Assembly: GCA_017983755.1 (NCBI GenBank)
Contig: JAGOAU010000010.1
Coordinates: 36,444-100,443, forward strand
Reading direction: 5' to 3'
Origin: Azonexus sp.
Lineage (GTDB): Bacteria; Pseudomonadota; Gammaproteobacteria; Burkholderiales; Rhodocyclaceae
DNA: 64,000 nt
Part shown: positions 4,353-61,338 of the stretch, in pieces
Layout: every line of letters begins with the position of its first letter
Numbering within the stretch: the first letter of the stretch is position 1
Program-made: the position numbers and the translations under genes
Notes under the pieces: model-generated
Told to the model about the DNA's origin: nothing
Database searches by the model: none
The model's input: only the letters and a program-made list of their open reading frames with translations

Positions 4353-4391
4353 CTGTTGCGGTCGACGCCGCAAAATGGCCGATTTCCAAAT
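4353..4391 (+). repeat. USS-like dispersed motif, copy 1
   Basis: CTGTTGCGGTCGAC core followed by AAAA and ATTT tracts spaced about 10 nt apart. It is intergenic and ends close to the ribosome site of the gamma-carbonic anhydrase gene. See the findings for the family. Confidence 0.75.
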
Positions 4392-4407
4392 TTCGCAAGG
4401 AGCCCGC

Positions 4408-4929
4408 ATGTCCCTCTTCCGCCTCGGAGAAAAGCAGCCGCAACTCGGCGAGAACGCCTGGGTCGCCCCCAACGCCACCGTGATCGGCGACATCCGCCTC
4501 GGCGCCAACGCCTCGATCTGGTGGAACGCCACGCTGCGCGGCGACAACGACCCGATCCACATCGGCGAGAACACCAACATCCAGGACGGTTCGGTGCTGC
4601 ACACTGACGAAGGCATCCCGATGCACATCGGCGCCAACGTCACCGTCGGCCACCTGGTCATGCTGCACGGCTGCACCGTCGGCGATGGCAGCCTGATCGG
4701 CATCGGCTCGGTCATCCTCAACCGCGCGGTGATCGGCAAGGGCTGCATCGTCGGCGCCAACACCCTGATCCCCGAGGGCAAGGTGTTTCCCGACCGCGTG
4801 CTGATCGTCGGCTCGCCGGGCAAGGTCGTGCGCGAACTTTCCGACGACGATGTCGCCCGCCTGAAAGCCTCGGCCGACCATTACGTCGACAACGCCCGCC
4901 GCTATCGGCAGACACTGCAGCCTGTGTAA
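4408..4929 (+). CDS. Gamma-carbonic anhydrase family protein (YrdA/PaaY-like)
   Basis: 173 residues of left-handed beta-helix built from hexapeptide repeats (for example [22 protein letters not shown]). Metal-ligand histidines lie in LHTD (about residue 68) and in GHLVMLHG (about residues 85-92), matching the three-His zinc or iron site of gamma-class anhydrases. Known homologues either hydrate CO2 weakly or act as uncharacterised trimers. The start at 4408 is chosen because AAGGAG lies 6 nt upstream; the longer in-frame extension would read through the dispersed motif. It is convergent with ccoG. Confidence 0.9.
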
Positions 4930-4934
4930 GCGCG

Positions 4935-4963
4935 AAAAAAGAGGCGGGAGACCAGCTCCCGCC
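4935..4963 (-). terminator. Intrinsic terminator of ccoG
   Basis: Stem GGCGGGAG / CTCCCGCC with loop ACCAG, followed on the minus strand by six T. It lies between convergent ccoG and the carbonic anhydrase gene. Confidence 0.85.
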
Positions 4964-4988
4964 CAAGCGGAGTCTGCCGGGACGGACG

Positions 4989-6750: not shown

Positions 6751-8070
6751 ATGACTGCCCACTTTCTGAGCGAACTGATTTCCTTCCTCGACGGCCTGCC
6801 CGAACCGCGTATCGTGATGGATGCCGATTACCGCATCGTCGCCGCCAACGCCGCCTACATGCGGGAATTCGGCGGCAATGCTGCGGTCGCCGGGCGCACC
6901 TGCTACGAGGTTTCACACCACTTCGACGTGCCCTGCGACCAGGCCGGCGAATCCTGCCCGCTCAAGCAAAGCCTCGAAGCCGGCACCCCGCAGCGCGTCC
7001 TGCACCTGCATCAGACGCCGCGCGGCGAAGAACATGTCGATGTGGAGACGACACCAATCCGCGACGACCAGGGCCAGATCGTCTATTTCGTGGAAACCAT
7101 GCGCCTTGTCCGCCAGGCCAGCGGCCGGGCGGCGGCGCAAGGACTGGTAGGGCGGGCGCCGGCCTTCGTCGGCATGCTGGAAAAGGTGCTGCGTGTCGCA
7201 CCTTCCGACGCCGCCGTGCTGCTGCTCGGCGAAACCGGCACCGGCAAGGAACTGGTCGCCCACGCGATTCATGATGCCGGCCGGCGCAACGAAGGACCGT
7301 TCGTTGCGGTCGACTGTGCCGGAATGACCGAAACGCTGTTCGAGAGCGAACTGTTCGGTTATGAAAAAGGTGCCTTCACTGGCGCCAGCCATCGCAAGCA
7401 GGGGCTGGTCGAAGCGGCGTCCGGCGGCACGCTGTTCCTCGACGAAATCGGCGAACTGCCGCTCGTCCTGCAGGTCAAGCTGCTGCGCCTGCTGGAAACC
7501 GGCACCTATCGCCGGGTCGGCGGTCTCGACTGGCTGCCCGCCGACTTCCGCCTGATCACCGCTACCCACCGCGACCTGCGAGCCATGGTGCAGTCCGAGA
7601 CCTTCCGCCGCGACCTCTATTTCCGCATCAACACCTTCCCGATCCACACCCCCGCGCTGCACGAACGGGCCGAAGACATTCCGCTACTGGCCAATTCACT
7701 GCTCGAGCGCGTCGACCGCGAGACCGGGCGCAGTTTCACCCCGGCAGCGCTCGCCTGGCTGGCCGGCCGCCGCTACAGCGGCAATATCCGCGAACTGCGC
7801 AACCTGATCGAACGTGCCACCCTGCTCGCAGACGGCGACGTGATCGACGTGCACCACCTCGCCGAAATGGCCGACGACATCCCCCCGGCACCTCCCGAAA
7901 CGACTGCTTCGTTCCACCTGAGCGAGGTGGTCGATCTGGAGACACTGGAAAAACGCTACCTGGAATGGGTCCGGACAAACCCGGAAAGCGACCTGCCAAC
8001 GCTGGCCGGCAAGCTCGGCATCAGCCCGCGGACGCTTTATCGCAAGCTGCAGAATGGGCGCAAGGTATGA
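6751..8070 (+). CDS. Sigma-54-dependent transcriptional activator with Cys-rich PAS sensor
   Basis: Enhancer-binding protein of 439 residues that remodels sigma-54 RNA polymerase by ATP hydrolysis. Order: PAS-like sensor (about 10-125); AAA+ domain with Walker A GETGTGKE (about 160), GAFTGA loop (about 209) and Walker [11 protein letters not shown] (about 228); and a Fis-type helix-turn-helix [16 protein letters not shown] at the C-terminus. There is no receiver domain, so the signal enters through the PAS domain. The PAS domain has three clustered cysteines (CYEV, PCDQ, SCPL) suggesting redox or metal sensing. ATG 6751 was preferred to GTG 6706 because the latter lies inside the palindromic promoter region. 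The target operon is not evident. Confidence 0.92.
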
Positions 8071-11115: not shown

Positions 11116-11790
11116 TTAGTGATTGCGGCGCAGGAAGGTGGCAGCCTGCGATTCCTCGATCAGCTTGCCGGCAGTGGCGATTTCCTTGCCCGTCGCGCGC
11201 ACCAGCAGCATCTGGAACAGGCGCGCCAGCATCAGCGTGTTGGCCATCGTGTCGCGGCGCCCGCTGCTGGCAATGCCGAACATTTCCAGCCAGTCGTCAA
11301 GCGGCAGCGTGACCATCGATTTCTCGTTGAACAGCGACGGCAACAGCCAGGCGAGATCGACCCACTGCGGCTGGAAATCGACGCCGAGACGTTCCTTGTA
11401 GGCGCGCTGCAGGAAGCCGCTGACGAACGGGCTGTGGTAGGTCACCAGTGGCGCCTTGGCGGCATAGGTCAAAAATGCCGTCAATTGACGGTCGACCGCA
11501 GCATCGTCGGCCTCCTCGCCTGAGAGGTCGAGGGCAAAGGCGTCGATCGGCTGGATTGCCCCGTTCGGCAGGCCGACGGCCGTAATCCCCTGCAATTCGT
11601 CCTCCGTCGCGCGTGGTCCCGTGGTGGCGATGTCGACCACCACGTAACGCGTGTGGAAATGCGGTTCGTCCAAGGCCGGCGCCTTGCTGGCGCGCCAGTC
11701 GGCGAGCGCCTGACGCACGTCCTCGGGCAGGTTGGCCGGCGAACGGGCACCGCCCTTGAAGAGAAAGTTCTTGAGTCCGAATACCATCAA
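11116..11790 (-). CDS. Degenerate DnaQ-like exonuclease-fold protein
   Basis: 224 residues aligned to the 3'-5' exonuclease fold (DEDD superfamily), but the catalytic residues are changed. Exo I reads VVVDIATTGP where active enzymes have D-x-E, so Glu is replaced by Ala. Exo II reads YHSPFVSGFL instead of HNxxFDxxFL. Exo III reads GRRDTMANTL instead of HxAxxDA. This predicts a non-catalytic protein, perhaps a binding or scaffold module for the neighbouring nucleotidyltransferase-like proteins. It overlaps the DUF294 gene start by 4 nt. One copy of the dispersed motif lies inside (11467-11501). Confidence 0.8.
   Translation of the reverse strand: MMVFGLKNFLFKGGARSPANLPEDVRQALADWRASKAPALDEPHFHTRYVVVDIATTGPRATEDELQGITAVGLPNGAIQPIDAFALDLSGEEADDAAVDRQLTAFLTYAAKAPLVTYHSPFVSGFLQRAYKERLGVDFQPQWVDLAWLLPSLFNEKSMVTLPLDDWLEMFGIASSGRRDTMANTLMLARLFQMLLVRATGKEIATAGKLIEESQAATFLRRNH
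11467..11501 (-). repeat. USS-like dispersed motif, copy inside the degenerate exonuclease gene
   Basis: Minus-strand CTGCGGTCGAC core with AATT and ATTTTT tracts. It encodes AAVDRQLTAFLT in frame. Confidence 0.7.
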
Positions 11791-13763: not shown

Positions 13764-14821
13764 AGTCCGTAGTTTAACTTGAGACGCTGCTGCAGTCGTC
13801 TTGCCTGCTTCAGCGACTCCCTGAGGATCGCCCGGTCGATGTCGTTCAGGCTGGCCAGCGGCACCCCGTTGCCGCCTTCCGGCCCGGCAGTGATCTGGTG
13901 CGCCAGGCGTAGCCGCAAAATGTGCGAAAAAGCGGCGTCGACCGCAACGATCTCGTCCGCCAGCAAGCCGCTGGCCGGTCCGGCATCGATCAGCCGGGCG
14001 CTGGTGTTCACCGCACGGGCACCGCCGGACAAGGCGAAGATACGCGCCGCGTCGACGAAGATGCGGCTGCCGAATTTCTTCAGGTCAACCTGCTCGCCGG
14101 ACTCGCCGCTCTCCCCCGCCACCTCGCCGCGGAAATTCAGCGGCACCGTTGCGTGCAGCGCATTGCTCGCCATCAGGTGCAGGAAGGCCGGCGTCTCGAC
14201 GGTCAGCGACAGGAGCAGGCTGCGCAGGGTCTCGCCGAGATCGGCGTCGCCATGCAGCGGGCGCAGGTCGAAGAAGATGGTGGCGTTGAGCAGCGCCCGC
14301 GGTTCCGGCCGCCGCACCCATTCGATGAACTGCTGCCGCCATTCGTCGAGCGACAGGCACCAGGCCGGGTTGCCGGCCATGATGCCGCCGGTGCACAGCG
14401 TGAAGCCGCAATCGGCCAGGCGCCGGTTGACGTCCTGGGCGAAGGGCAGGAAGAGCTGACGCAGGGCGTCCGCCTCCTGGCGGTCGGCGGCGCTGAAAAC
14501 CAGGCCGTTGTCCTGATCGCTGACGAAGGTCTGCTCGTGCCGCCCTTCCGAACCGAGCGCCAGCCAGCACCAGGACACCGCCGGCAGGCGATGGCGACGC
14601 GCCGTCAGTTCGATGACGCGCAGCGACAGGCGGTCGTTGAAGGCCGAAATCAGGCGCGTCAGCAGGCGGCCGCTGAGATCGCGGGCAGCCAGCTCGCGCA
14701 GGAATTCATCGATCCGGACGGCGAGGCGCGGCGCGTCGTCGAGCGCGGCCAGCGCGTTCAGGTCGTTTTCGAGTGCCAGCTGCCGGCGGCAGGGCAGAAC
14801 GCTTTCCAGGGACCAGGGCAC
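13760..14821 (-). CDS. DUF294 nucleotidyltransferase-like protein lacking sensor domains
   Basis: 353 residues corresponding only to the second half of the neighbouring 658-residue protein. GSEGRHEQTFVSDQDNG (about residue 93) and the DUF294 C-terminal region with VDLKKFGSRIFVDAARI are retained, while the cyclic-nucleotide and CBS domains are absent. This is likely a tandem duplication followed by loss of the regulatory half, giving a possible heteromeric partner. It overlaps the downstream gene by 4 nt. A dispersed motif near 13914-13947 encodes the VAVDAAFSHIL stretch. Confidence 0.88.
   Translation of the reverse strand: MPWSLESVLPCRRQLALENDLNALAALDDAPRLAVRIDEFLRELAARDLSGRLLTRLISAFNDRLSLRVIELTARRHRLPAVSWCWLALGSEGRHEQTFVSDQDNGLVFSAADRQEADALRQLFLPFAQDVNRRLADCGFTLCTGGIMAGNPAWCLSLDEWRQQFIEWVRRPEPRALLNATIFFDLRPLHGDADLGETLRSLLLSLTVETPAFLHLMASNALHATVPLNFRGEVAGESGESGEQVDLKKFGSRIFVDAARIFALSGGARAVNTSARLIDAGPASGLLADEIVAVDAAFSHILRLRLAHQITAGPEGGNGVPLASLNDIDRAILRESLKQARRLQQRLKLNYGL
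13914..13947 (-). repeat. USS-like dispersed motif, copy inside DUF294 gene
   Basis: Minus-strand TTGCGGTCGAC core, then TTTTT and ATTTT tracts at helical-turn spacing, within coding sequence. Confidence 0.7.
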
Positions 14822-16995: not shown

Positions 16996-17030
16996 GGATT
17001 TCGGGCAATTGCGGCCGTCGACCGCAACAG
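16996..17030 (-). repeat. USS-like dispersed motif between response regulator and exonuclease fusion
   Basis: Minus-strand CTGTTGCGGTCGAC core followed by AATT and AAAT tracts. It occupies most of the 60-nt spacer between the two genes. Confidence 0.75.
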
Positions 17031-17422: not shown

Positions 17423-20134
<2,712 letters not shown>

Positions 20135-23277: not shown

Positions 23278-24798
23278 ATGACCGCCATCAAACAGGAAGA
23301 CCTGATCCAGTCCGTCGCCGATGCCTTCCAGTACATCAGCTACTATCACCCGCTGGACTACATCACGGCGCTGGGCGAAGCCTACGAGCGCGAGGAAAGC
23401 CCCGCCGCCAAGGACGCCATCGCCCAGATCCTCACCAACTCGCGCATGGCCGCCGAAGGCCACCGTCCGATCTGCCAGGACACCGGCATCGGCATGGTCT
23501 TCATCAAGGTCGGCATGCAGGTCACCTGGCCGGATGCGACGATGAGCATCCAGCAGATGATCGACGAAGGCGTCCGCCGCGCCTATGCCAACCCGGACAA
23601 CCCGTTGCGCGCTTCGGTGCTGGCCGACCCGGCCGGCGCGCGCAAGAACACCAAGGACAACACCCCGGCCGTCGTCCATTTCGAAATCGTTCCCGGCCAC
23701 CACGTCGAGGTCATCTGTGCGGCCAAGGGCGGCGGCTCGGAGGCCAAGTCCAAGTTCGCCATGCTCAACCCATCCGACGACCTGGTCGACTGGGTGTTGC
23801 ACAAGATTCCGGAAATGGGTGCCGGCTGGTGCCCGCCCGGCATCATCGGCATCGGCATCGGCGGCACGCCGGAAAAGGCGATGCTGCTGGCCAAGGAATC
23901 GATCATGGCGCCGGTGGACATCCACGAACTGAAGGCCCGCGGCGCCAAGACCCGCGCCGAGGAACTGCGCCTAGAACTGCATGAAAAGATCAACGCCCTC
24001 GGCGTCGGCGCCCAGGGCCTCGGCGGTCTGACCACCGTGCTCGACGTCAAGGTGCTGGACTACCCCTGCCACGCCGCCAACCTTCCGGTAGCGCTGGTCC
24101 CGAACTGTGCGGCGACCCGCCACTGCCACTTCCATCTCGATGGTTCCGGCCCGGCCAAGATCGAGCCGCCGAAGCTGGAAGACTGGCCGGCCGTGACCTG
24201 GACGCCGGACCTCAAGGCCGCGACGCAAGTCAATCTGAACACGTTGACCAAGGAAGAAGTCGCTGCCTGGAAGCCGGGCCAGAAGCTGCTACTGAACGGC
24301 AAGATGCTGACCGGCCGCGACGCGGCCCACAAGCGCATCGCCGACATGCTGGCCAAGGGCGAGAAGTTGCCGGTCGACTTCACCAACCGCGTCATCTACT
24401 ACGTCGGTCCGGTCGACCCGGTGCGCGACGAAGTCGTCGGCCCGGCCGGCCCGACCACCGCCACCCGCATGGACAAATTCACCCGCATGATGCTGGAGAA
24501 GACCGGCCTGATCTCGATGATCGGCAAGTCCGAGCGCGGCCCGGTCGCCATCGAGGCGATCAAGGACAACAAGTCGGCCTACCTGATGGCCGTCGGCGGC
24601 GCCGCCTACCTGGTCGCCAAGGCGATCAAGTCGGCCAAGGTCGTCGGCTTCGCCGACCTCGGCATGGAAGCCATCTACGAGTTCGACGTCGAGAACATGC
24701 CGGTGACGGTTGCGGTCGACTCCTCGGGCACCTCGGTTCACAACACCGGCCCGAAGGAATGGCAGGTCAAGATCGGCAAGATCCCGGTCGCCGCCTGA
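23278..24798 (+). CDS. Fumarate hydratase, class I (iron-sulfur)
   Basis: Single-chain oxygen-sensitive fumarase interconverting fumarate and L-malate in the TCA cycle, 506 residues. Cluster cysteines occur in CQDTGIG (about 66), NCAATRH (about 278) and CPPGIIG (about 183); the catalytic C-terminal domain ends with SSGTSVHNTGPKEW. ATG 23278 follows GGAG; a TTG two codons earlier is less likely. VAVDSS near the end matches the dispersed-motif core but lacks the A/T tracts. Two hairpins follow. Confidence 0.95.
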   Translation: MTAIKQEDLIQSVADAFQYISYYHPLDYITALGEAYEREESPAAKDAIAQILTNSRMAAEGHRPICQDTGIGMVFIKVGMQVTWPDATMSIQQMIDEGVRRAYANPDNPLRASVLADPAGARKNTKDNTPAVVHFEIVPGHHVEVICAAKGGGSEAKSKFAMLNPSDDLVDWVLHKIPEMGAGWCPPGIIGIGIGGTPEKAMLLAKESIMAPVDIHELKARGAKTRAEELRLELHEKINALGVGAQGLGGLTTVLDVKVLDYPCHAANLPVALVPNCAATRHCHFHLDGSGPAKIEPPKLEDWPAVTWTPDLKAATQVNLNTLTKEEVAAWKPGQKLLLNGKMLTGRDAAHKRIADMLAKGEKLPVDFTNRVIYYVGPVDPVRDEVVGPAGPTTATRMDKFTRMMLEKTGLISMIGKSERGPVAIEAIKDNKSAYLMAVGGAAYLVAKAIKSAKVVGFADLGMEAIYEFDVENMPVTVAVDSSGTSVHNTGPKEWQVKIGKIPVAA

Positions 24799-24880: not shown

Positions 24881-24921
24881 CTGTTGCGGTCGACCCGCAA
24901 AAAACGGCAAAAATCACCAAT
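24881..24921 (+). repeat. USS-like dispersed motif, intergenic copy
   Basis: CTGTTGCGGTCGAC core followed by AAAAAA and AAAAAT tracts about 10 nt apart. One of the clearest copies, between convergent genes. Confidence 0.8.
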
Positions 24922-26292: not shown

Positions 26293-26310
26293 AACGGCCA
26301 GATTTCAAAA
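26272..26310 (+). repeat. USS-like dispersed motif spanning a stop codon
   Basis: CTGTTGCGGTCGAC core plus AAAA and ATTTC tracts. The core codes for the last residues LLRST of the metalloprotease, and the stop codon falls in the first A tract. Confidence 0.75.
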
Positions 26311-42354: not shown

Positions 42355-42588
42355 TTATTTGCCGCAGCGGCCGGTGCGGTCGACAGGTTTACCCGGTGCA
42401 GTTTGGCCTGATGACTCCCTCTTTACGCTCCACGCGTACATCAGGGATGACTCGTTGAACTCCTGCCTGGTTTCCAGATCCATCCACCAGACCAGGCGCC
42501 GACTGTCCAGGCCAAGGTATTTCCACTGCCTCAACTCTCCGCTGCAGAGTTCGACCGTATATACCGTGTTGATATCGAGAGCGATCAT
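42355..42588 (-). CDS. Small hypothetical protein, SH3-like
   Basis: 77 residues. The core reads INTVYTVELCSGELRQWKYLGLDSRRLVWWMDLETRQEFNESSLMYAW, with balanced hydrophobic beta-strand pattern and many aromatics, which looks like a genuine small beta-barrel, not a shadow frame. The last 20 residues (SGQTAPGKPVDRTGRCGK) are encoded over a dispersed-motif copy and may be an extension. No ribosome site is obvious. Not named. Confidence 0.5.
   Translation of the reverse strand: MIALDINTVYTVELCSGELRQWKYLGLDSRRLVWWMDLETRQEFNESSLMYAWSVKRESSGQTAPGKPVDRTGRCGK
42375..42410 (+). repeat. USS-like dispersed motif, degenerate copy
   Basis: GTGCGGTCGAC core with TTTA and TTT tracts after ccoG2. Confidence 0.45.
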
Positions 42589-46987: not shown

Positions 46988-48253
46988 ATGAAGCCCGCCG
47001 GATCGCTCGCCCGCCACCTCGCCACCGCCGCCCGGCGCCGGCCGGAGGCGCTTGCCATGAGTTGCGCCGGGCAGAACTGGACCTTCGCCGAATTGCTGGC
47101 CGAAACCGGCGCGCTCGGTGCGACGCTGGAAGGCGGCGCGGCGCCGCTCGTCGTTGCCGGCAGCGGCCTCGACCTCGCCCGCCACGCCTACGCCTGCAGC
47201 CTTGAAAATCGGCCTTTCTGGCCGGTCGACCGCAACCGCTCGGTGCACTGGACCGGCGAACTGCCGCCGCGCGTCGCGCTGGTCATTGCCACCAGCGGCA
47301 GCGAGGGCGAGCCGCGCGGGGTCATGCTGAGCAACGCCAACCTCGACGCCGCGGCCGCCGCCGCCAATCGCCATCTGCCGCTGGCGGCCGGCGATCTCTG
47401 GCTGGACTGCCTGCCGCTGCATCACATCGGCGGCCTCGCCATCCTCTGGCGCTGCGCACGCGCCGGGGCCGGCGTGCTGTTGCACGACGGCTTCGACGCA
47501 ACGACGGTAGCCGCCGATCTGGCGCGCCAGCCGGTCACCCATCTTTCACTGGTACCGGCGATGCTGGCCCGCCTGCTGGAAACCGGCGTCACGCCGCCGG
47601 CCAGCCTGCGCCACGTGATGATCGGCGGCGCCGCGCTGTCGCAGGCCCTGCACGACCGGGCGCGCGCCGCCGGCTGGCCGCTCAACCCGAGCTACGGCAT
47701 GAGCGAGACGGCGGCCCAGATCGCCACCTGGACGCCAGCCGACGGGCCGTGGCACGAAGGCCTGGTCGGCCGCCCGCTCGGCCGCAACGAATTCGCGCTC
47801 GCCGCCGACGGCCGACTCCGCATCCGCGGTCCGCAGGTCATGGCCGGCTACCTCGATGGCAGCGGGATTGACGCCGACGGCTGGCTGACCACCGGTGACC
47901 TCGGCGAAATCGATGCTTTTGGGCGGTTGACCGTAACCGGCCGCGCCGATGACATGCTGATCAGCGGCGGCCGCAACGTGCATCCGCTGGAAATCGAATC
48001 CTGTCTTGCCGCCTGCCCCGGCGTGCGCGACGTGGCGGTCACCGGCCTGCCCGACCCGGTCTGGGGCGACCTGATCGTCGCACTGGTGGTCGGCGAGGCG
48101 GAACCGGCCCACCTGCGCGCCTGGAGCGAAGCGCGCCTGCCCGGCCCGGCCCGGCCGCGGCGCATCGTCCGCCTGCCCGACCTGCCACGCAACGCCGCCG
48201 GCAAGCTCGAACGCGCCGCACTGCGTCGCCTCGCCCGCGAGGCCACGGCATGA
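46988..48253 (+). CDS. menE: o-Succinylbenzoate-CoA ligase
   Basis: 421-residue acyl-adenylate-forming ligase that activates o-succinylbenzoate for MenB. Motifs: ATSGSEGEPRGVML (about 100), LPLHHIGGL (about 146), NPSYGMSETAAQIATW (about 238), TTGDLGEIDAFGRLTVTGRADDML (about 304) and the C-terminal catalytic Lys in RNAAGKLERAALRR. ATG 46988 begins MKPAGSLARHLATAARRRPE; a longer in-frame ORF reaches 46775 but has no protein-like start. Overlaps menF by 4 nt. A truncated second copy lies at 38981. Confidence 0.93.
   Translation: MKPAGSLARHLATAARRRPEALAMSCAGQNWTFAELLAETGALGATLEGGAAPLVVAGSGLDLARHAYACSLENRPFWPVDRNRSVHWTGELPPRVALVIATSGSEGEPRGVMLSNANLDAAAAAANRHLPLAAGDLWLDCLPLHHIGGLAILWRCARAGAGVLLHDGFDATTVAADLARQPVTHLSLVPAMLARLLETGVTPPASLRHVMIGGAALSQALHDRARAAGWPLNPSYGMSETAAQIATWTPADGPWHEGLVGRPLGRNEFALAADGRLRIRGPQVMAGYLDGSGIDADGWLTTGDLGEIDAFGRLTVTGRADDMLISGGRNVHPLEIESCLAACPGVRDVAVTGLPDPVWGDLIVALVVGEAEPAHLRAWSEARLPGPARPRRIVRLPDLPRNAAGKLERAALRRLAREATA
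47202..47235 (-). repeat. USS-like dispersed motif inside menE
   Basis: Minus-strand TTGCGGTCGAC core with ATTTT tract; encodes ENRPFWPVDRN on the plus strand. Confidence 0.65.
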
Positions 48254-51761: not shown

Positions 51762-51796
51762 GCTGCGGTCGACTGCCCGTAGAGGGCAAAAATGCG
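51762..51796 (+). repeat. USS-like dispersed motif after ppk1
   Basis: CTGCGGTCGAC core; the single long A tract AAAAAT forms the start of the terminator stem that follows. Confidence 0.65.
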
Positions 51797-52012: not shown

Positions 52013-52015
52013 GGT

Positions 52016-52046
52016 TTTTCCCTGTTTTAGGCGGTCGACCGCAACA
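52016..52046 (-). repeat. USS-like dispersed motif between relA and the small membrane protein gene
   Basis: Minus-strand TTGCGGTCGACCGC followed by AAAA and AAAAA tracts; contains the ribosome site of the downstream gene. Confidence 0.75.
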
Positions 52047-52054
52047 TTCGCCAA

Positions 52055-54277
52055 TCAGGCCCGCCGCACGCCGACCACGCCTTCGACCTCGTGGATCAGC
52101 ATCAGCGTGCGCTGCAACTGCTGCAGGTTGGTGATCTCGACGGTAAAGCCCATGTGCGCCTTGCCCTGTTTGGATTGAGTGTTCACGCCGACGACGTTGA
52201 GCTTTTCCTTGGTGAAGATTTCCGAGATGTCGCGCAGCAGGCCCTGGCGGTCATGGGCGTCGACGACGATGTCGGCGGCGAAGACACCGGTGGTCTGCAG
52301 TCCCCAGTCGGTCTCGATGACGCGCTCGGGATGCAGCGCCGCCAGGTTGGCGAAGTTGGGGCAGTCCATGCGGTGGATCGAAATGCCCTTGCCGCGGGTG
52401 ACGAAGCCCTGGATTTCATCCGGCGGCGCCGGCTTGCAGCAACGCGCCAGTTGCGTCAGCAGCTTGTCGACACCGACGATCAGGATGCCCTGGTTGCCGG
52501 CGACCGGCTTGCTCGGCCGGGTCTGCACCGCATCCGGCAACTGGGTCTCCGCAAGCAGGTCGCCGCCACGCGCCACCGACTGGAACTGGCGCTGGTTGAG
52601 GTCGCCGCGCGCCGCCGCGATATACAGGTCATCGGCACGCGAAAAGCCCAGCTTGTGGGCGAGTTCGTCGATGTTGGCGCCGGTCTGCCCGGCCCGCTGC
52701 AGTTCCTTGGCGATCAGCGCGCGCCCTTCGGCCAGCGTCTCTTCCAGTGCCAGGTTGGAGAACCAGGCGCGGACCTTGACCCGCGCGCTCTTGGTGTGGA
52801 TGTAGTTGAGCGACGGGTTCAGCCAGTCGCGCGACGGACCACCATGCTTGGCGGTGATGATCTCGACGCGCTGCCCGGTTTCCAGCGGCGTGTTGAGCGG
52901 CACCAGTTGCCCGTTGACCTTGGCGCCGCGGCAGCGGTGACCGAGGTCGGTATGCACGCGGTAGGCGAAGTCGACCGGCGTCGCCCCCTGCGGCAGGTCG
53001 ACCACCTTGCCCTGCGGCGTGATGACGTAGAGCGTCTCGTCGAGCGCCGCCTGCTTGTAGTGGGTGATCCAGTCCGAGCTATCGGCGACTTCGTCCTTCC
53101 AGGTCAGGAGCTGGCGCAACCAGGCGATCTTCTCGTCGTAGTTGTCCTCGGCGCTGCGCTTGGTGCCTTCCTTGTAGCGCCAGTGGGCGGCTACACCGAG
53201 TTCGGCGTGCTTGTGCATCTCCCAGGTGCGAATCTGGATTTCCAGGCTGCGCCCGTCCGGGCAGCGCACCGCCGTGTGCAGCGAGCGGTAGTAATTGCCC
53301 TTGGGGTTGGAGATGTAGTCGTCGAACTCCTTGGATATCGGCGACCACAGGTTATGCACGATGCCGAGCGCGGTATAGCAGTCCTTGAGGTCGTCGACGA
53401 TGATCCGCAAGGCACGCACGTCGTAGACCTCGGAGAACTCGACGCCCTTCTTGCGCATCTTGTTCCAGATGCTGTAGATGTGTTTCGGCCGGCCGTAAAC
53501 TTCGACCCTGGTCACCCCGGCCGCCGCCAGCTCGGCGCGTACCTTCGCCACCGCGTCGGTGATGAACTGCTCGCGCTCGCTGCGCTTCTCGTCGAGCATC
53601 CCGGCGATCTTCTTGTAGGTATCCGGATGCAGGAAGCGGAAGGAAAGGTCCTCCAGCTCCCATTTCAGTTCCCAGACCCCGAGCCGGTTGGCCAGCGGCG
53701 AGTAGAGTTCCAGCGTTTCGCGCGCCACTTGCACGCGCAGGTCATCCTGGTGCACGGCGTAGAAGCGCAGCGTCTGGGTGCGGCTAGCCAGGCGTAGCAG
53801 GACGACGCGAATGTCTTCGACCATCGCCAGCAGCATCTTGCGCAGCACTTCGATCTGCGCCTTCATTTCCGCCGGATTGACTTCGCCGGCCTCGATGTTG
53901 GCGGCGACGAAGCCCTTGGTGATCGGCCGCAGCCGGTTCAGCCGCGATATGCCGTTGACCAGATGCGCCGCCGGCTTGCCGAAGCGTTCCTCGATGCGCG
54001 TGATGCCGTGTTCGTCATAGGCCGGCACCGCGAACAGCAACGCCGCCATGCGCGATTCGACATCGAGCTTGAGACCGGCGATGATGACCGCCATGCCCAG
54101 CGCGTGCGACCAGATGCGCTCGCCGCTGCCGAGCACGGCATCGCCATAGACCTCCCAGGCGTAGGTGACGACCTTCTGCAGCGCCGCCGCCTCATCGGCA
54201 TCGAGGCCTTCGGCAAGGATGGCGAAGAACTGGTCGAAATCGCTTTGTGCAGCGACGGAATGGACAACGGAAACCAT
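52055..54277 (-). CDS. relA: (p)ppGpp synthetase RelA
   Basis: 740 residues. The N-terminal hydrolase domain is degenerate: where SpoT has the His-Asp pair (LLHDVIED), this reads LLFAVPAYDEHG, so hydrolysis is not expected. The synthetase domain is intact, with YGRPKHIYSIWNKMRKKGV, VYDVRALRIIVDDLKDCY, EFDDYISNPKGNYYRSLHT and LEIQIRTWEMH. A TGS domain (LYVITPQGKVVDLPQGATPVDFAYRVHTDLGH), a zinc-finger/CC-type region and a C-terminal ACT domain follow. Start at 54277 by homology (MVSVVHSVAAQSDFDQFF). Divergent from an EamA transporter. Confidence 0.95.
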   Translation of the reverse strand: MVSVVHSVAAQSDFDQFFAILAEGLDADEAAALQKVVTYAWEVYGDAVLGSGERIWSHALGMAVIIAGLKLDVESRMAALLFAVPAYDEHGITRIEERFGKPAAHLVNGISRLNRLRPITKGFVAANIEAGEVNPAEMKAQIEVLRKMLLAMVEDIRVVLLRLASRTQTLRFYAVHQDDLRVQVARETLELYSPLANRLGVWELKWELEDLSFRFLHPDTYKKIAGMLDEKRSEREQFITDAVAKVRAELAAAGVTRVEVYGRPKHIYSIWNKMRKKGVEFSEVYDVRALRIIVDDLKDCYTALGIVHNLWSPISKEFDDYISNPKGNYYRSLHTAVRCPDGRSLEIQIRTWEMHKHAELGVAAHWRYKEGTKRSAEDNYDEKIAWLRQLLTWKDEVADSSDWITHYKQAALDETLYVITPQGKVVDLPQGATPVDFAYRVHTDLGHRCRGAKVNGQLVPLNTPLETGQRVEIITAKHGGPSRDWLNPSLNYIHTKSARVKVRAWFSNLALEETLAEGRALIAKELQRAGQTGANIDELAHKLGFSRADDLYIAAARGDLNQRQFQSVARGGDLLAETQLPDAVQTRPSKPVAGNQGILIVGVDKLLTQLARCCKPAPPDEIQGFVTRGKGISIHRMDCPNFANLAALHPERVIETDWGLQTTGVFAADIVVDAHDRQGLLRDISEIFTKEKLNVVGVNTQSKQGKAHMGFTVEITNLQQLQRTLMLIHEVEGVVGVRRA

Positions 54278-55227: not shown

Positions 55228-56009
55228 TGGGACTCTTCGACTGGTTCGGCGGCCACAGGAAAACCGGCGTTGCCGATTCCCTGTGGGGGAAGACGGTGAG
55301 CGCCCTGCCCTTTCTCGACGCGCTTGCGGTCGACGAGAAAAAAAGGCTCAAAACGCTGGTCGAACAGTTCCTGGCGGAAAAGGAATTCAGCACCGCCGGC
55401 GGTCTTGAACTGAGCGACGAGATCTGCGTCGCCATTGCCGCCCAGGGCTGCCTGCCCATCCTCGAACTCGGCCTCACCGCCTACCGCGACTGGGTCGGCA
55501 TCGTCGTCTATCCCGACGAGTTCGTCGTCCCGCGCCGCGTCGAGGACGAGGACGGCATCGTGCACGAATACGACGACGTGCTCTCCGGCGAAGCCTGGGA
55601 AGGCGGGCCGCTGATCATCTCGTGGCACGACGCGCAGATGGCCGGCGCCGGCTACAACGTCGTCATCCACGAATTCGCGCACAAGCTCGACATGCTCAAC
55701 GGCGAGGCCGACGGGATGCCGGCGCTGCATTCCGGGCTGACGGCGGAAGCCTGGGACGACGTCTTCCTCGCCGCCTACGACGATTTTTGCCGCCGCGTGG
55801 ACAGTGGCGAGGAAACCGTCATCGACCCTTACGCCAGCGACGATCCGGCCGAGTTCTTCGCCGTGCTCTCGGAAAACTTCTTCGAACTGCCCGACGTGAT
55901 CAACCGCGAATATCCGGCTCTCTACGCGCTGCTGCGCACCTACTACCGTCAGGACCCGCTCAGCCGCCTGACGAAGGCATCGACCGCCCCGAGCACCGCC
56001 GCCGGCTGA
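55227..56009 (+). CDS. mtfA: MtfA-like zinc peptidase
   Basis: 260 residues of the M90/MtfA family. The zinc motif is VIHEFAHKLDMLNG (HExxH, about 150), with a downstream Glu in FAVLSENFFE acting as the third ligand. In E. coli, MtfA inactivates the glucose repressor Mlc and thereby affects ptsG. A dispersed motif at 55322 encodes LAVDEKKRLKTL. The 3' 61 nt overlap the convergent hydrolase gene. Initiation is coupled to the EamA gene. Confidence 0.93.
   Translation: MGLFDWFGGHRKTGVADSLWGKTVSALPFLDALAVDEKKRLKTLVEQFLAEKEFSTAGGLELSDEICVAIAAQGCLPILELGLTAYRDWVGIVVYPDEFVVPRRVEDEDGIVHEYDDVLSGEAWEGGPLIISWHDAQMAGAGYNVVIHEFAHKLDMLNGEADGMPALHSGLTAEAWDDVFLAAYDDFCRRVDSGEETVIDPYASDDPAEFFAVLSENFFELPDVINREYPALYALLRTYYRQDPLSRLTKASTAPSTAAG
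55324..55356 (+). repeat. USS-like dispersed motif inside mtfA
   Basis: CTTGCGGTCGAC core followed by AAAAAAA and AAAA tracts, in frame. Confidence 0.7.
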
Positions 56010-56716
56010 TCGCGGTGCGGCGAGTGGCCGCATTGGGGCAGCTTGAGGAGCGTCGCATCGGCCACGCGCTCGGCGATGACCTCGATCTGGCGCATCGTCG
56101 CGTACTCGTCGTCCTCACCCTGGATCGCCAGCACCGGGCAGCGGATCGGCGGCAGGTATTCCTCGATGTTCCAGTCGCGGAAGGCGGGCGACAGCCAGGT
56201 GTCGTTCCAGTCGGCAAATACCCGCGCCGTATCGGCGTGATAGCGCTCCAGCTTCTGCGGCAGGTCGGTTGCGGTCCACGCCTCTTTGGCGGCCAAAATG
56301 CCCGTCAGCGTTTCTTCCTCGACGAACTCGTGCGGCGCCATGACTATGACCCCGAGCGGCACCTCGGGAAAGGCCCCGGCGAAAATCAGCGCAATGCTGC
56401 CGCCATCGCTGTGGCCGAAGAGCAGCGGGCGCTCGATGCCCAACTCCGCCAGCAGCGCCGGCAGCTGTTCGAGCGCCTCGCGGTGCATGTAGCGCGGCGT
56501 GCGCGCTTCCGTGTAAGGCTGGGAATGGCCATAGCCGGCGCGCGACCAGACGATCACCCGGCAGCCGGTCACCGCCGCCACGCGTTCGGGAAAATGCCGC
56601 CACATGGCGATGCAGCCGAGGCCTTCGTGCAGCATAAGTATGGTCGGCAGGCCGGAGCGATGTGCCGGGTAGTCGAGATATTCGAGGCGCAGGCCGTTGA
56701 CAACGAGATGTTTCAT
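55949..56716 (-). CDS. Alpha/beta hydrolase
   Basis: 255 residues. The nucleophile elbow is GHSDGGS (about 103-109); the acid lies in IQGEDDEYAT (about 202) and the His in CGHSPHRDQP (about 230). Resembles esterase or haloperoxidase-type hydrolases; no specific substrate can be deduced. The end overlaps mtfA convergently by 61 nt, and the start overlaps the preceding hydrolase stop by 4 nt (ATGA). It holds a degenerate dispersed motif (56269-56300). Confidence 0.9.
   Translation of the reverse strand: MKHLVVNGLRLEYLDYPAHRSGLPTILMLHEGLGCIAMWRHFPERVAAVTGCRVIVWSRAGYGHSQPYTEARTPRYMHREALEQLPALLAELGIERPLLFGHSDGGSIALIFAGAFPEVPLGVIVMAPHEFVEEETLTGILAAKEAWTATDLPQKLERYHADTARVFADWNDTWLSPAFRDWNIEEYLPPIRCPVLAIQGEDDEYATMRQIEVIAERVADATLLKLPQCGHSPHRDQPAAVLGAVDAFVRRLSGS
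56269..56300 (+). repeat. USS-like dispersed motif, degenerate, inside hydrolase gene
   Basis: TTGCGGTCCAC (one mismatch in the core) with TTT and AAAAT tracts at the usual spacing. Confidence 0.5.
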
Positions 56717-58556: not shown

Positions 58557-58565
58557 GCATTTTCA

Positions 58566-59564
58566 CTACGCGCCGGCCGAAATTTCGTCGGTCAGCGGTT
58601 GTCCGGTGGCAAACTGCGTGGCACTGCGCAGCGTGGTCTCGCTGATCGTCGTGATCGCCTCGCGTGTGAAGAAGGCCTGGTGCCCGGTGATGATCACGTT
58701 GGGGAAGGAGATCAGCCGCTGCAGCACGTCGTCGGTAACGATTACGCTCGACAGGTCACGGAAGAACAACCCTGCTTCCTGTTCATAGACGTCGGCAGCG
58801 AAACCGCCGATCTGACCGCTCTTGAGGCCCTCGATGACGGCCTCGGTATCGACCAGCCCACCGCGGCTGGTGTTGATCAGCAATACACCGGGCTTGGCAC
58901 GGGCGATCGTGTCCGCGTTGATGATGTGGTAAGTCTCTGGGGTGAGCGGCGCGTGCAGCGAGACGATGTCGGCGTCGTGGCCGATCTCTCCCGGCGCGGC
59001 ATAATGCCCGCCGAGCGCCTCGAATTCGGGCGACGGGAATTTGTCGTAGCCGATCACGTTGCAGCCGAAGCCGACCATGATCTTGGCGAAGATACGACCG
59101 ATCTTGCCGGTGCCGATGACGGCGACCGACTTGCCGTGCAGGTCGAAGCCCATCAACCCGTCGAGCGCGAAGTTGGAATCGCGCGTCCTGTTGTAGGCGC
59201 GATGGATCTTGCGGTTGATCGCCTGCAGCAGCGCCACGGCATGTTCAGCGACCGAGTACGGCGAATAATCCGTGACGCGCACGACCTTGAGGCCGAGCTG
59301 TGCCGCTGCTTTCAGGTCGACATTGTTGAAGCCGGTGCAGCGCAGGGCGACCAGCCCCGTGCCCCCTGCCTTCAATTGAGCCAGCACCTCGGCGTCGGCC
59401 TTGTCGTTAACGAAAATGCAGACGGCGTCGTAGCCGGCAGCCAGATGGACATTGTCGAGGTCGAGCGGAACCTCGTAGTACTTGAGCGTGTGCCCCTCGG
59501 CAGCATTGGCGGCGTCGAGGTATTCGCGGTCATAGCGCTTGGCGCTGAATACGGCGATCTTCAT
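58566..59564 (-). CDS. ldhA: D-lactate dehydrogenase (2-hydroxyacid dehydrogenase)
   Basis: 332 residues, very close in pattern to E. coli LdhA, which reduces pyruvate to D-lactate with NADH. Features: FSAKRYDREYLDAAN, ALRCTGFNNVD, the Rossmann motif GTGKIG (about 151), INTSRGGLVDTEAV with catalytic Arg (about 235), Glu in VYEQEAG (about 264) and catalytic His in GHQAFFTREA (about 296). The role is fermentation or lactate metabolism. 35 nt separate it from the upstream transporter gene. Confidence 0.95.
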   Translation of the reverse strand: MKIAVFSAKRYDREYLDAANAAEGHTLKYYEVPLDLDNVHLAAGYDAVCIFVNDKADAEVLAQLKAGGTGLVALRCTGFNNVDLKAAAQLGLKVVRVTDYSPYSVAEHAVALLQAINRKIHRAYNRTRDSNFALDGLMGFDLHGKSVAVIGTGKIGRIFAKIMVGFGCNVIGYDKFPSPEFEALGGHYAAPGEIGHDADIVSLHAPLTPETYHIINADTIARAKPGVLLINTSRGGLVDTEAVIEGLKSGQIGGFAADVYEQEAGLFFRDLSSVIVTDDVLQRLISFPNVIITGHQAFFTREAITTISETTLRSATQFATGQPLTDEISAGA

Positions 59565-59599
59565 GGCATGTCTCCTGATGTTGTTTGTTCATTGACCGG

Positions 59600-61192
59600 C
59601 TAGCCGCCCAGCAATGCGGCCGCTACCTGGACGAAGACGATCTTGGCGACCGTCATCGACGGGAAGATCATGGCGTAGCCGACATCCGGCTTGTCGGTCG
59701 GCGCGACGCGTCCGGCAAAGGCCAGAATGGCCGGATTGCCGGTCGCCCCGCTGATGACACCGGCCGTCGTATCGAAGGGCAGCCGGAACACCCACAGCGC
59801 CAGCACGGCGGTAATCAGCACCAGGGCAAGAAGGATCAGTGCTCCATAGACGATGAAGGTGATCCCCTGCGCCCCGACGGTCGCGAAGAACTTGGGCCCG
59901 GAAGCGATACCGACCTGGGCGAGAAAGATGGTCAGGCCGAAGTTGCGCAGGACGAGGTTTGCCGACAGCGGCATGGACCACACGAATGGTCCGGTACGCC
60001 TGACCTTGCCAAGCCAGAGCGCAAGCAACAGCAGCGCGGCGAGGCCAAGCGTCAGCCGGGCGACGCCGGGAATGACGATCGGGATAAGGCCAAGGCCCAG
60101 CCCAAGCGCGGCACCGATACCGATCGAGACGAAGCTCAGTTCGGCTGTGCCCTTGATCGAGTCGCCGAAGAACTTGCGCATCGCCTTGCTGTCATTGCGG
60201 TTCATCAGGAGACCTACGCGGTCGCCAAACTCGAGGACCAGCTCCGGATTGGGCAGCATATCCGCATCGCCACGGCGAACCTGGACGATGGACGCGGAGA
60301 CCCCCTCGGGGAAACGGAGATCGCCGAGCGCCAGACCGACCACCGCCTTGCTCGATGCGAACACGCGCTGGTAATCGAGATCCTCGCGGTGGCTGGTCAT
60401 GCGCCCCGGCTGTAGTTCCCCGCAAAGCTCCGCAGCCTTCTTGAGCGCTTCGGGACTTGTGCTCGTTGCCAGCAGCACGTCATCGTCGCGCAGCACGAGG
60501 CTGTCGGACGGCAGCTGGTTGTGGTGTTCGCGGCGGATTGCGGCGACGGCGACGCCGGGTGGCAATTTGGCCGCCAGCAGCGACAGGCGCTTGCCGACAA
60601 ACTCCGAGTTATGCAAGGCGATCTCGGCCAGTTCGATGACCTGGTTGGCGGGTTGCTCGATCTTCGGCTTGAGAATGGCCTTGAGCGCGTAGATACACAG
60701 GATCGGACCCGCGACCCCGAATGGATAGGCCACCGAGTAGCCGACTGCCGCGCCGTCGCCCTTGAGTGTGGCAATAATCGCCTGCAGCGTCGCCGTACTG
60801 GTGCCCGAGCCGGCGAACATGCCGAGCGCCTCGTCGAGCCTGATACCGGCGAACGGCACCAGCGCCAGCGCCACGCCGCCGGCGCCGAGCACACCGAGGA
60901 AGGCGGCAGCATTGGCCTTGAGGCCCTCGGGGGTCGTCATACCCTTGAAGAACTGGGCGCCGTACTGGATGCCGACGCCGTAGAGAAAGAGCAGCAGCCC
61001 GAGCGTACCGAGCAGCGCCGGCGGCGCCGCCTTGGGCGCAAACCCGCCGATCGCCAGCCCGACGAAGAGCACAGCGCCGGAACCCAGCGAAAAACCCTTG
61101 ATATTGATTTCGCCGACGATGTAGCCGAGCGCAACGGTAAGAAAAAGCGTCAGCAGCGGCTGGGTTTCGAGCAGCATTCTGATCTGTTCCAT
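59600..61192 (-). CDS. AspT/YidE-family transporter with TrkA-C domains
   Basis: 530 residues of the aspartate:alanine exchanger family. Two membrane halves (about 1-170 and 370-530, each about five to six helices) flank a cytoplasmic region with two RCK/TrkA-C domains (about 185-270 and 280-360: NQVIELAEIALHNSEFVGKRLS, GVSASIVQVRRGDADMLPNPELVLEFGDRV). GSGTSTATLQAIIA and GATGNPAILAFAGR are the paired family motifs. GGGAGGTGAT precedes ATG 61192. Location ahead of ldhA could suggest transport of a carboxylate, which is not proven. Confidence 0.92.
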   Translation of the reverse strand: MEQIRMLLETQPLLTLFLTVALGYIVGEINIKGFSLGSGAVLFVGLAIGGFAPKAAPPALLGTLGLLLFLYGVGIQYGAQFFKGMTTPEGLKANAAAFLGVLGAGGVALALVPFAGIRLDEALGMFAGSGTSTATLQAIIATLKGDGAAVGYSVAYPFGVAGPILCIYALKAILKPKIEQPANQVIELAEIALHNSEFVGKRLSLLAAKLPPGVAVAAIRREHHNQLPSDSLVLRDDDVLLATSTSPEALKKAAELCGELQPGRMTSHREDLDYQRVFASSKAVVGLALGDLRFPEGVSASIVQVRRGDADMLPNPELVLEFGDRVGLLMNRNDSKAMRKFFGDSIKGTAELSFVSIGIGAALGLGLGLIPIVIPGVARLTLGLAALLLLALWLGKVRRTGPFVWSMPLSANLVLRNFGLTIFLAQVGIASGPKFFATVGAQGITFIVYGALILLALVLITAVLALWVFRLPFDTTAGVISGATGNPAILAFAGRVAPTDKPDVGYAMIFPSMTVAKIVFVQVAAALLGG

Positions 61193-61298
61193 ATCACCTC
61201 CCTGGCATACGCCTTCCAAGATACGGACTTTCCATGAGCATCAACTCCAGCGGCGTTCGGCAAATGCTGCACCGCTTGAAAACAAGTATAGACCTGCC

Positions 61299-61338
61299 CG
61301 GTTGCGGTCGACAGCGAAAAATGACCAAAAATGCGCCG
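61299..61338 (+). repeat. USS-like dispersed motif, intergenic copy
   Basis: GGTTGCGGTCGAC core with AAAAAT and AAAAAT tracts 10 nt apart. The 320-nt interval 61193-61510 contains this, a terminator, and no gene. Confidence 0.78.

What the first reader, a model, noticed from the sequence alone, without database searches (positions are those of the whole stretch)
4353..61338. A dispersed motif with the architecture of a DNA uptake signal sequence
The core TTGCGGTCGAC (also CTGCGGTCGAC) is followed by two A/T tracts of 3-6 nt about 10 nt apart. I located 17 good copies (4353, 11467r, 13914r, 16996r, 24881, 26272, 27627, 29821, 34641 and its inverted partner, 38033, 39177r, 47202r, 51762, 52016r, 55324, 61299) plus weaker ones (42375, 56269). 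By rough composition-based estimate the 9-mer GCGGTCGAC should occur only one or two times in both strands of 64 kb; I count about 20. Half the copies lie inside conserved genes, in frame (encoding VAVD, LRST, VDRN). Pasteurellaceae uptake sequences have a TGCGGT-containing core followed by two AT tracts at the same spacing, so a similar role in natural transformation is plausible. Such a sequence is not known to me for Rhodocyclales. Alternatives are a REP-like element or a nucleoid/partition site.
Basis: partly seen in the sequence, partly recalled or inferred. Interest (0 to 1): 0.85.

Follow-up and report, generated by a model that had tools for sequence, protein, structure and literature searches.

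The report
DNA uptake signal in Azonexus/Dechloromonas bacteria
A short DNA motif followed by two A/T tracts recurs about a hundred to eight hundred times in the genomes of roughly half of the sampled species of one bacterial genus, in spellings that differ between species, and looks like a self-recognition tag for taking up DNA, a device known so far from two other bacterial families.

Summary
GCGGTCGAC occurs 25 times in the window against 1.7 expected. TGCGGTCGAC occurs 586 times in the window's own incomplete genome, strands 295/291, reversed control 13. A/T tracts at +13..17 and +24..28 accompany 58 of 111 exact copies in 455 kb, against 0.58% of positions. Core plus tracts is confined to one genus (Azonexus/Dechloromonas): 31 of 60 drawn genomes hold 96-791 copies, one 89, 28 at most 35; 285 genomes of 67 other genera of the family hold at most 5. 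Spellings differ between species, e.g. TGCGGTCGAC, YACGGTCAAC, TCACGGTCGAC, CTGCGGTCAAC. Coding copies differ between relatives by substitution, and imperfect tract-bearing copies are mostly transitions. Copies prefer intergenic DNA, form some inverted pairs, and are absent from the one informative foreign insert. I read it as a third, independently evolved uptake-signal system of the Pasteurellaceae/Neisseriaceae kind, spread by transformation. Uptake and receptor are not shown. comEC was not found in the own 74% assembly, and the link between comEC damage and motif loss is not significant.

The parts
4358..4386 (+). core GCGGTCGAC (preceded by GTT) plus both A/T tracts; intergenic
   Evidence: A/T in tracts 4/5, 4/5
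11471..11499 (-). core (preceded by GCT) plus both tracts, in predicted gene 11116-11787
   Evidence: 4/5, 5/5
13917..13945 (-). core (GTT) plus both tracts, in DUF294 nucleotidyltransferase gene 13760-14821
   Evidence: 4/5, 5/5
16997..17025 (-). core (GTT) plus tracts, intergenic
   Evidence: 3/5, 4/5
24886..24914 (+). core (GTT) plus both tracts, intergenic
   Evidence: 5/5, 5/5
26277..26305 (+). core (GTT) plus both tracts, at the 3' end of predicted gene 25513-26292
   Evidence: 5/5, 4/5
27629..27657 (+). core (GCT) plus both tracts, intergenic
   Evidence: 4/5, 4/5
29824..29852 (+). core (GTT), weak first tract, in thiamine-pyrophosphate enzyme gene
   Evidence: 2/5, 4/5
34646..34674 (+). 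variant core GCGGTCAAC plus tracts; inverted partner of the next copy
   Evidence: 4/5, 5/5
34659..34687 (-). core (GTT) plus tracts; the pair can fold as a hairpin; inside a MenC-like gene
   Evidence: 5/5, 4/5
38034..38062 (+). core (GCT) plus tracts in iron-containing alcohol dehydrogenase gene; conserved in L033 and L060
   Evidence: 4/5, 5/5
39180..39208 (-). core (GTT) plus tracts in a duplicated segment
   Evidence: 3/5, 5/5
42376..42404 (+). core preceded by GGT, degenerate tracts, intergenic
   Evidence: 3/5, 4/5
47205..47233 (-). core (GTT) plus tracts in AMP-binding enzyme gene, in the other copy of the duplicated segment; conserved in L033 and L060
   Evidence: 3/5, 5/5
51765..51793 (+). 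core (GCT) plus tracts just downstream of polyphosphate kinase; core conserved in L033 and L060
   Evidence: 2/5, 5/5
52014..52042 (-). core (GTT) plus tracts, intergenic by the RelA/SpoT-type gene 52055-54277; core conserved in L033, L034, L060
   Evidence: 5/5, 4/5
52031..52059 (+). overlapping opposite-strand core that completes the palindrome GCGGTCGACCGC; lacks the 5' T and the second tract
   Evidence: 4/5, 2/5
55326..55354 (+). core (CTT) plus tracts in frame in peptidase M90 (MtfA-type) gene 55227-56009; core present in L033, L034, L039, L040, L060
   Evidence: 5/5, 4/5
56271..56299 (+). weaker variant GCGGTCCAC with tracts, intergenic
   Evidence: 3/5, 5/5
61304..61332 (+). core (GTT) plus both tracts, intergenic; core conserved in L034
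   Evidence: 5/5, 5/5
7304..7314 (+). exact core TTGCGGTCGAC without tracts, in sigma-54 activator gene (may be chance)
18000..18010 (+). exact core TTGCGGTCGAC without full tracts, in predicted gene 17423-20134
24710..24720 (+). exact core TTGCGGTCGAC without tracts, in fumarase gene

Best explanation
The motif is an uptake signal for natural transformation. A protein on the cell surface, most likely a type IV minor pilin as in Neisseria (ComP), binds DNA that carries a core of the form NRCGGTCRAC followed, about one and two helical turns on, by two A/T tracts. Such DNA is pulled in by the pilus, made single-stranded at ComEC and recombined. Because fragments with a better match are taken up more often, copies that arise by point mutation are spread and kept by recombination (drive). 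Changes of the receptor shift the preferred spelling; loss of uptake lets copies decay. Shown here: dispersion, consensus, tracts, substitution rather than insertion in coding copies, conservation in three near relatives, different spellings in different species, restriction to the genus, absence from about half its sampled species. Inferred: surface binding, uptake bias, the receptor, the drive.
For: 586 copies of TGCGGTCGAC, 295/291 by strand, control 13. Top 10-mer of 455 kb, 111 against 5.1 by a second-order Markov model; GTTGCGGTCGAC 55 against 0.3. Both tracts with 58 of 111 exact copies against 0.58% background. Core+tract pattern: 31 of 60 genus genomes hold 96-791 copies, reversed control at most 5; 285 genomes of 67 other genera of the family hold at most 5, control at most 4. 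Spellings: TACGGTCAAC 20 of 22 copies with tracts in 202 kb of G051/G052; G011 and G042; G038. Seven genomes with YACGGTCAAC fall in one group of a SpoT tree (SH-aLRT 98), and the copy-number label is clustered, 14 changes against 21.1 shuffled. Single-mismatch copies carrying tracts: 17 of 76 transitions, 2 of 111 transversions. 15 of 15 aligned cases, seven different copies, identical in three relatives against 31-41% of arbitrary 10-mers. 42 of 111 copies intergenic against 13% noncoding. Inverted pairs that fold well. No core+tract copy in about 34 kb over the insert in comEC of G002, 4.75 expected, P 0.009. comEC in 56 of 60 genus genomes. A probable minor-pilin operon in the own genome.
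Against: No uptake or binding experiment. comEC not found in the own assembly (74% complete); its contig ends 3.4 kb past the window. comEC damage is not significantly commoner in motif-poor genomes, 7 of 25 against 3 of 29, p=0.16; three motif-rich genomes (G002, G008, G054) have a broken comEC, and 18 motif-poor ones have a long open comEC frame (five of these re-checked). No minor pilin examined separates motif-rich from motif-poor genomes. Spacing is not significantly regular (p=0.13). One own contig (C5) has 23 copies on one strand and 10 on the other, although the total against GC skew is 59 to 51. The 15 conserved cases are not independent, and two of the seven copies align to one segment of the relative. 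In L035, L038, L041 and L043 the intergenic copy at 52014 falls in long alignment gaps, so that site does not tell substitution from insertion. In five more distant relatives 0 of 12 aligned copies are identical.
Confidence: 0.85

Rival explanations
1. Fossil signal: it was an uptake signal in the genus, but the window's own species no longer transforms and its copies are relics.
For: comEC not found in the own assembly; about half of the genus lacks the motif, and comEC is broken in 10 of 54 assessed genomes.
Against: Own tract-bearing copies are sharp, 58 exact against 19 with one mismatch. The own contig ends 3.4 kb past the window, and in L033 and L060 short matches to the end of comEC lie 10.7 kb from the M90 gene, at the edge of those loci, so comEC may simply be missing from the assembly.
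Confidence: 0.1
2. Chromosome-organising site: a nucleoid, partition or segregation protein binds it in the cytoplasm.
For: Hundreds of dispersed copies; A/T tracts also suit proteins that bend DNA. One own contig is uneven by strand, 23 against 10.
Against: No overall preference relative to local GC skew, 59 against 51, unlike KOPS or Chi as I recall them. About half of the genus lacks it, and the 285 genomes sampled from other genera of the family lack it. Change of spelling between species of one genus is unusual for such sites.
Confidence: 0.03
3. A DNA-modification (restriction-modification) site kept by selection.
For: The core contains the palindrome GTCGAC, and some copies overlap as GCGGTCGACCGC.
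Against: The profile extends asymmetrically over about 30 bp with two A/T tracts on one side; YACGGTCAAC is not palindromic.
Confidence: 0.01
4. REP-like or transposed element.
For: High copy number and some inverted pairs.
Against: In-frame copies in conserved genes differ between relatives by substitution without flanking gaps in most alignments; the profile ends near +30.
Confidence: 0.01

Closest known systems
Pasteurellaceae uptake signal sequence (USS; Hin type AAGTGCGGT, Apl type ACAAGCGGT)
   Same: GCGGT in the core (in the window's spelling), two A/T-rich segments on the 3' side about one helical turn apart, many copies, no orientation bias overall, intergenic preference, closely spaced inverted pairs, origin by mutation (PMC1626085 passages; PMC12616744 introduction).
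   Different: Another class of Proteobacteria. The core extends 3' (GCGGTCGAC) instead of 5' (AAGTGCGGT). The first tract starts 13 nt after the first G of GCGG against about 6 nt by the cited numbering. GCGG is not invariant in the genus. Density is about 0.1-0.3 per kb against about one per kb in the cited paper.
Neisseriaceae DNA uptake sequence (DUS; GCCGTCTGAA and dialects; receptor ComP)
   Same: Beta-proteobacterial lineage; several dialects consistent with phylogeny (PMC3630211, abstract seen); inverted pairs (PMC12616744 introduction).
   Different: Unrelated core; no flanking motifs (PMC1626085 passage). No entry named ComP among 17 PDB matches of the PilE-like pilin at E 0.01 or less.
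FimT, DNA-binding minor pilin of Legionella and relatives
   Same: A GspH/FimT-family match is present in the own genome and in 57 of 60 genus genomes.
   Different: Found in motif-rich and motif-poor species alike; no sequence signal is known to me for FimT; its GRxR tail motif (PMC8897410 passages) was only looked at by eye in the 30 loci.

Membership tests
Pasteurellaceae-type USS | Hundreds of copies far over expectation, both strands equally | tested here: met
   586 copies, 295/291, control 13
Pasteurellaceae-type USS | Inner core GCGG conserved in all members | tested here: not met
   Met in the window's spelling; G051/G052 use YACGGTCAAC and G011 TCACGGTCGAC
Pasteurellaceae-type USS | Two A/T-rich segments 3' of the core about one turn apart | tested here: met
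   Tracts at +13..17 and +24..28, centres 11 nt apart; distance from the core differs from USS
Pasteurellaceae-type USS | Copies arise by point mutation, not insertion | tested here: met
   Coding copies; transitions dominate imperfect tract-bearing copies. Some intergenic sites lie in alignment gaps and do not decide
Pasteurellaceae-type USS | Somewhat more regular spacing than random | tested here: not met
   Gap CV 0.886 against 0.988 random, p=0.13
Pasteurellaceae-type USS | Demonstrated preferential uptake | not testable with these tools
   Needs an uptake or transformation assay
Pasteurellaceae-type USS | Predicted receptor ComN (PpdA) | tested here: inconclusive
   FimT-like protein matches NF007800 only over residues 17-85, 31.7 bits against a cut-off of 158; that this model stands for PpdA is recalled
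Neisseriaceae-type DUS | GCCGTCTGAA-like core with CTG, no A/T segments | tested here: not met
Neisseriaceae-type DUS | ComP receptor | tested here: inconclusive
   PilE-like pilin: 17 PDB matches at E 0.01 or less, none named ComP; not all pilins of the genome were compared
Uptake signal in the general sense | Dialects that follow phylogeny | tested here: met
   one gene tree, and four of the seven YACGGTCAAC genomes rest on one or two copies
Uptake signal in the general sense | Depleted from foreign DNA | tested here: met
   0 copies in about 34 kb over the insert of G002, 4.75 expected; one element only, the others lie in motif-poor genomes
Uptake signal in the general sense | Transformation machinery in the organism | tested here: inconclusive
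   comEC in 56 of 60 genus genomes, not found in the own 74% assembly; probable minor-pilin operon
REP / transposed element | Insertion signature at orthologous sites | tested here: not met
   Coding copies
Chi / KOPS polar sites | Strand bias with replication | tested here: not met
   59 against 51 relative to GC skew; contig C5 alone 23 against 10

The most novel reading that the evidence does not exclude
A third, independently evolved sequence-specific DNA-uptake system exists in the Azonexus/Dechloromonas genus. It reached the same kind of solution as Pasteurellaceae (a CGGT-containing core plus two A/T tracts one turn apart), diversified into at least four spellings within one genus, was lost repeatedly, and stands in conflict with mobile elements that integrate into comEC.
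Probability: 0.75. Interest if true: 0.88.

Novelty: new variant of a known kind. Interest (0 to 1): 0.82.

Why it matters
[quoted passage not shown] A third lineage with many species, motif-rich and motif-poor side by side, gives an independent replicate of how uptake specificity arises, changes its spelling and is lost. It turns the search for a receptor into a comparative problem with many contrasts inside one genus, and tests whether the A/T-tract architecture reflects a general physical need of the uptake step. It could also offer a practical route to genetic work in these bacteria.

Tried and rejected
Receptor by presence or absence: a match to the PilE-like pilin is in 58 of 60 genomes, many only through the shared N-terminal helix, and a GspH/FimT-family match in 57 of 60; both occur in motif-rich and motif-poor species. 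Adjacency of the two genes, judged by eye, did not separate the groups. PDB searches with two pilins named no uptake receptor.

comEC damage as the cause of motif loss: suggestive, not significant, 7 of 25 against 3 of 29, p=0.16; or 2 of 29, p=0.065, if the frame break in G054 is taken as an assembly error. Left out: four genomes without a hit (G000, G009, G032, G037) and two with comEC at a contig edge (G006, G019). Damage was verified on fetched DNA for the ten damaged genomes; of the 44 counted as intact, eight were re-checked there (G016, G017, G021, G023, G025, G026, G039, G040) besides G033 (the query) and G050, and the rest go by the open-frame length. Rich and poor were split at 90 copies of the core+tract pattern; G005 with 89 counts as poor.

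Regular spacing: not significant. Strand bias: none overall, uneven on one contig. Other spellings in motif-poor G034, G043, G046, G021, G018: none found in about 65 kb each; a wholly different signal is not excluded. My first reading that genomes with 130-270 copies of TGCGGTCGAC are decaying was wrong for those examined: G051, G052, G038 and G042 carry another spelling at high copy number. CGCGGTCGAC, seen locally in L036 and L038, is not counted as a secure dialect: the genome of L038 also holds 350 copies of TGCGGTCGAC.

In print: Dechloromonas with 'DNA uptake sequence' and with 'uptake signal sequence' gave 0 papers; Azonexus with 'natural transformation' gave 2 listings, unrelated by title; the listings show nothing on this genus by title (capped lists); the 9-mer itself gave 162 papers, 20 listed, none on this subject by title. 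Only open-licence PubMed Central papers were searched. A Verminephrobacter paper suggests selective uptake in another betaproteobacterium; the passages read name no motif.


Full report
OBSERVATION. GCGGTCGAC occurs 25 times in the window; 100 dinucleotide shuffles give mean 1.72, maximum 6. In the window's own assembly (2.515 Mb, 43 contigs, 74% complete) TGCGGTCGAC occurs 295 times forward and 291 times reverse; the reversed pattern occurs 13 times.

ANATOMY. In 455 kb of own sequence (window plus 20 stretches) TGCGGTCGAC is the top 10-mer, 111 copies against 5.1 expected from a second-order Markov model, and GTTGCGGTCGAC the top 12-mer, 55 against 0.3. The profile of 156 sites shows G-(T/C)-T before the core, a C at +11, an A/T tract at +13..17, G/C-rich positions at +20..22 and an A/T tract at +24..28, and fades near +30. 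Both tracts (at least 4 of 5 A/T each) accompany 58 of 111 exact copies, against 0.58% of positions. Of single-mismatch copies, 17 of 76 transitions and 2 of 111 transversions carry both tracts, as expected if imperfect copies are mutated perfect ones.

PLACE IN THE GENOME. By my own simple gene caller (87% coding; it missed a pilin operon, so it overstates noncoding DNA for copies and background alike) 42 of 111 copies are intergenic against 13% noncoding sequence (binomial p 3e-11). Of 69 coding copies 39 lie on the gene's strand in frame 0. Relative to local GC skew 59 copies lie on the G-rich and 51 on the C-rich strand; by contig, C5 has 23 against 10 and C1 22 against 24. Spacing is not significantly regular (CV 0.886 against 0.988 random, p 0.13). 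Inverted pairs occur 3 times in 455 kb of own sequence and 6 times in 191 kb of G050. Seven of these nine were folded; six fold better than all 200 shuffles, the window pair better than all but one. The window pair lies inside a predicted gene.

WHO HAS IT. Named relatives of a window protein place the genome in Azonexus/Dechloromonas; closest are Dechloromonas sp. UBA6271 (90%) and Dechloromonas sp. H13 (89%). TGCGGTCGAC in 14 named genomes: Azonexus sp. R2A61 1256, Azonexus sp. GS18 802, Dechloromonas sp. H13 735, UBA6271 684, SSB2 679, the MAG MnB_19 350, the MAG mtb01 133, the other seven at most 72 (L036 was not held). Across 60 genus genomes counts run from 18 to 1256. Among 285 genomes of 67 other genera of the family the maximum is 70; among 297 genomes outside the genus in an order-wide draw it is 107, in a 5.4 Mb genome.

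CORE PLUS TRACTS. The pattern CGGTCRAC-N6-WWW-N6-WWWW was chosen on local data: 70 hits in 455 kb of own sequence, 0 for its reverse, 0 in 300 kb of five motif-poor relatives, 0 in 328 kb of outgroup loci. Genome-wide it occurs 350 times in the own genome. Of 60 genus genomes 31 hold 96 to 791, one holds 89, and 28 hold at most 35; reversed control at most 5. Two further genus genomes met only in the family draw hold 493 and 426 (G204, G257). In 285 genomes of 67 other genera it occurs at most 5 times, control at most 4. The distribution is two-peaked and confined to the genus within this family; core plus tracts was not searched beyond the family.

SPELLINGS. K-mers anchored on the tracts show that species spell the core differently. 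G051 and G052 use YACGGTCAAC (TACGGTCAAC 20 of 22 copies with tracts, CACGGTCAAC 10 of 12, in 202 kb). G038 has A before the core in 17 of 26 GCGGTCGAC copies and also CGGTCGAC after GA- or NA-. G011 uses TCACGGTCGAC (6 of 10 tract-bearing copies in 28 kb), G042 CTGCGGTCAAC (7 of 14 in 45 kb), G012 CCACGGTCAAC (3 of 6); G030 mostly ACGGTCGAC forms; G033 and G059 are mixed. mtb01 shows three CTGCGGTCAA copies. CGCGGTCGAC appears in L036 (2 copies) and L038/G015 (6 copies, 2 with tracts), but the genome of L038 also holds 350 TGCGGTCGAC, so I do not count it. On a SpoT tree of 54 rows the labels rich/middle/poor (by TGCGGTCGAC density, set before the spellings were known; five named rows unlabelled) need 14 changes against 21.1 when shuffled. 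Seven genomes with YACGGTCAAC copies (G051, G052, G054, G055, G002, G003, G012) fall in one group (SH-aLRT 98) that also holds motif-poor G034; for G054, G055, G002 and G003 this rests on one or two copies each, and single YACGGTCAAC-type copies also occur outside the group, in G017, G030 and G042. It is one gene's tree.

CHANGE AND UPKEEP. In alignments with L033, L034 and L060 all 15 aligned cases are identical in the 10-mer, against 31-41% of arbitrary 10-mers in the same alignments; they cover seven window copies, and those at 39200 and 47225 align to one segment. In five more distant relatives 0 of 12 are identical. The in-frame copy in the M90 peptidase gene (55326) is present in L033, L034, L039, L040 and L060 (with a 1-nt gap in an A run in L060); in L035, L036, L037, L038, L041, L042, L043, L045 and L046 the site differs by substitution without gaps; in L044 and L047 the alignment has gaps. 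The intergenic copy at 52014 is aligned without gaps in L033, L034 and L036, with small gaps in L060, and falls in long gaps in L035, L038, L041 and L043, so it does not decide between substitution and insertion.

MACHINERY. ComEC is found in 56 of 60 genus genomes. It is not found in the own assembly, whose contig ends 3.4 kb past the window. In L033 and L060 only short matches to the last 30 or so residues of comEC are seen, at the edge of the loci, 10.7 kb from the M90 gene. The own genome has a row of pilin-like genes (PilE-like, FimT-like, PilV-like, then three genes that I name PilW, PilX and PilY1 by place and size) downstream of a gene I read as ispH; the PilV match is just under its cut-off, 49 against 52.2 bits, and PilX and PilY1 have no NCBIfam match.

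MOBILE ELEMENTS IN comEC. In G002 and G043 comEC is split near residue 264 by about 33 kb; the first called gene of both inserts is a large serine recombinase (Resolvase, Recombinase, zinc ribbon). G028 has a 2.3 kb insert near residue 245. In G035 the halves are 5.3 kb apart and in G056 about 23 kb apart, broken near residue 247. G005 breaks at 247 and its first half was not met in 39 kb. G018 keeps a remnant. G034 has a frame break near residue 340, G008 is split over two contigs near residue 340, G054 has a frame break near 450. The stretches fetched over these inserts hold no core+tract copy; only G002 is motif-rich, so only there is this informative, 4.75 expected (P 0.009). Damage is not significantly linked to motif poverty.

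COMPARISON. Pasteurellaceae USS have a GCGG inner core and two A/T segments centred 12 nt apart; Neisseriaceae DUS have a CTG core and no flanking motifs (PMC12616744 introduction; PMC1626085 passages; PMC7811141 passages; PMC3630211 abstract and outline). Here the tract centres are 11 nt apart but lie 6-7 nt further from GCGG, the core extends 3', and GCGG is ACGG in some species. It works like a USS by most genomic signs tested; by sequence it belongs to neither family. One 2025 paper states that only those two families are known to have such signals, and searches in open-licence papers found none for this genus.

VERDICT. A strong, genus-restricted uptake-signal-like sequence with species-specific spellings. 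The step from genomic signature to uptake is inference from the two known systems; uptake and receptor remain to be shown.

Noticed in passing
L205-L208 (G043, G002), L185-L190, L195-L197, L209-L214: comEC is interrupted or broken in 10 of 54 assessed genus genomes, seven times near residues 245-265; two inserts of about 33 kb begin with a large serine recombinase, which suggests site-specific integration into comEC.
   Followed up: partly
G000:C1:131919-152496 (L015 from 11919, L016 to 12496): Largest motif-free gap on the own contigs measured, G+C 56% against 62.7% for the contig: probably a foreign island; its genes were not examined.
   Followed up: no
window 39000-39412 and about 47025-47437: A duplicated segment within the window, inferred from alignments to the same part of L033; each copy carries the motif.
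   Followed up: no
window and L009-L028: GATTTCCTTG / CAAGGAAATC is over-represented, 20 against 0.8 expected; probably a ribosome-binding-site context (recalled, not tested).
   Followed up: no
L039, L083, L084, L154, L179-L184 (G050): 18 of 63 copies overlap an opposite copy as the palindrome GCGGTCGACCGC in the genome richest in TGCGGTCGAC.
   Followed up: no
L085-L114, L225-L254: Minor pilins of the genus are divergent and differently arranged; no link with the motif seen by eye.
   Followed up: partly
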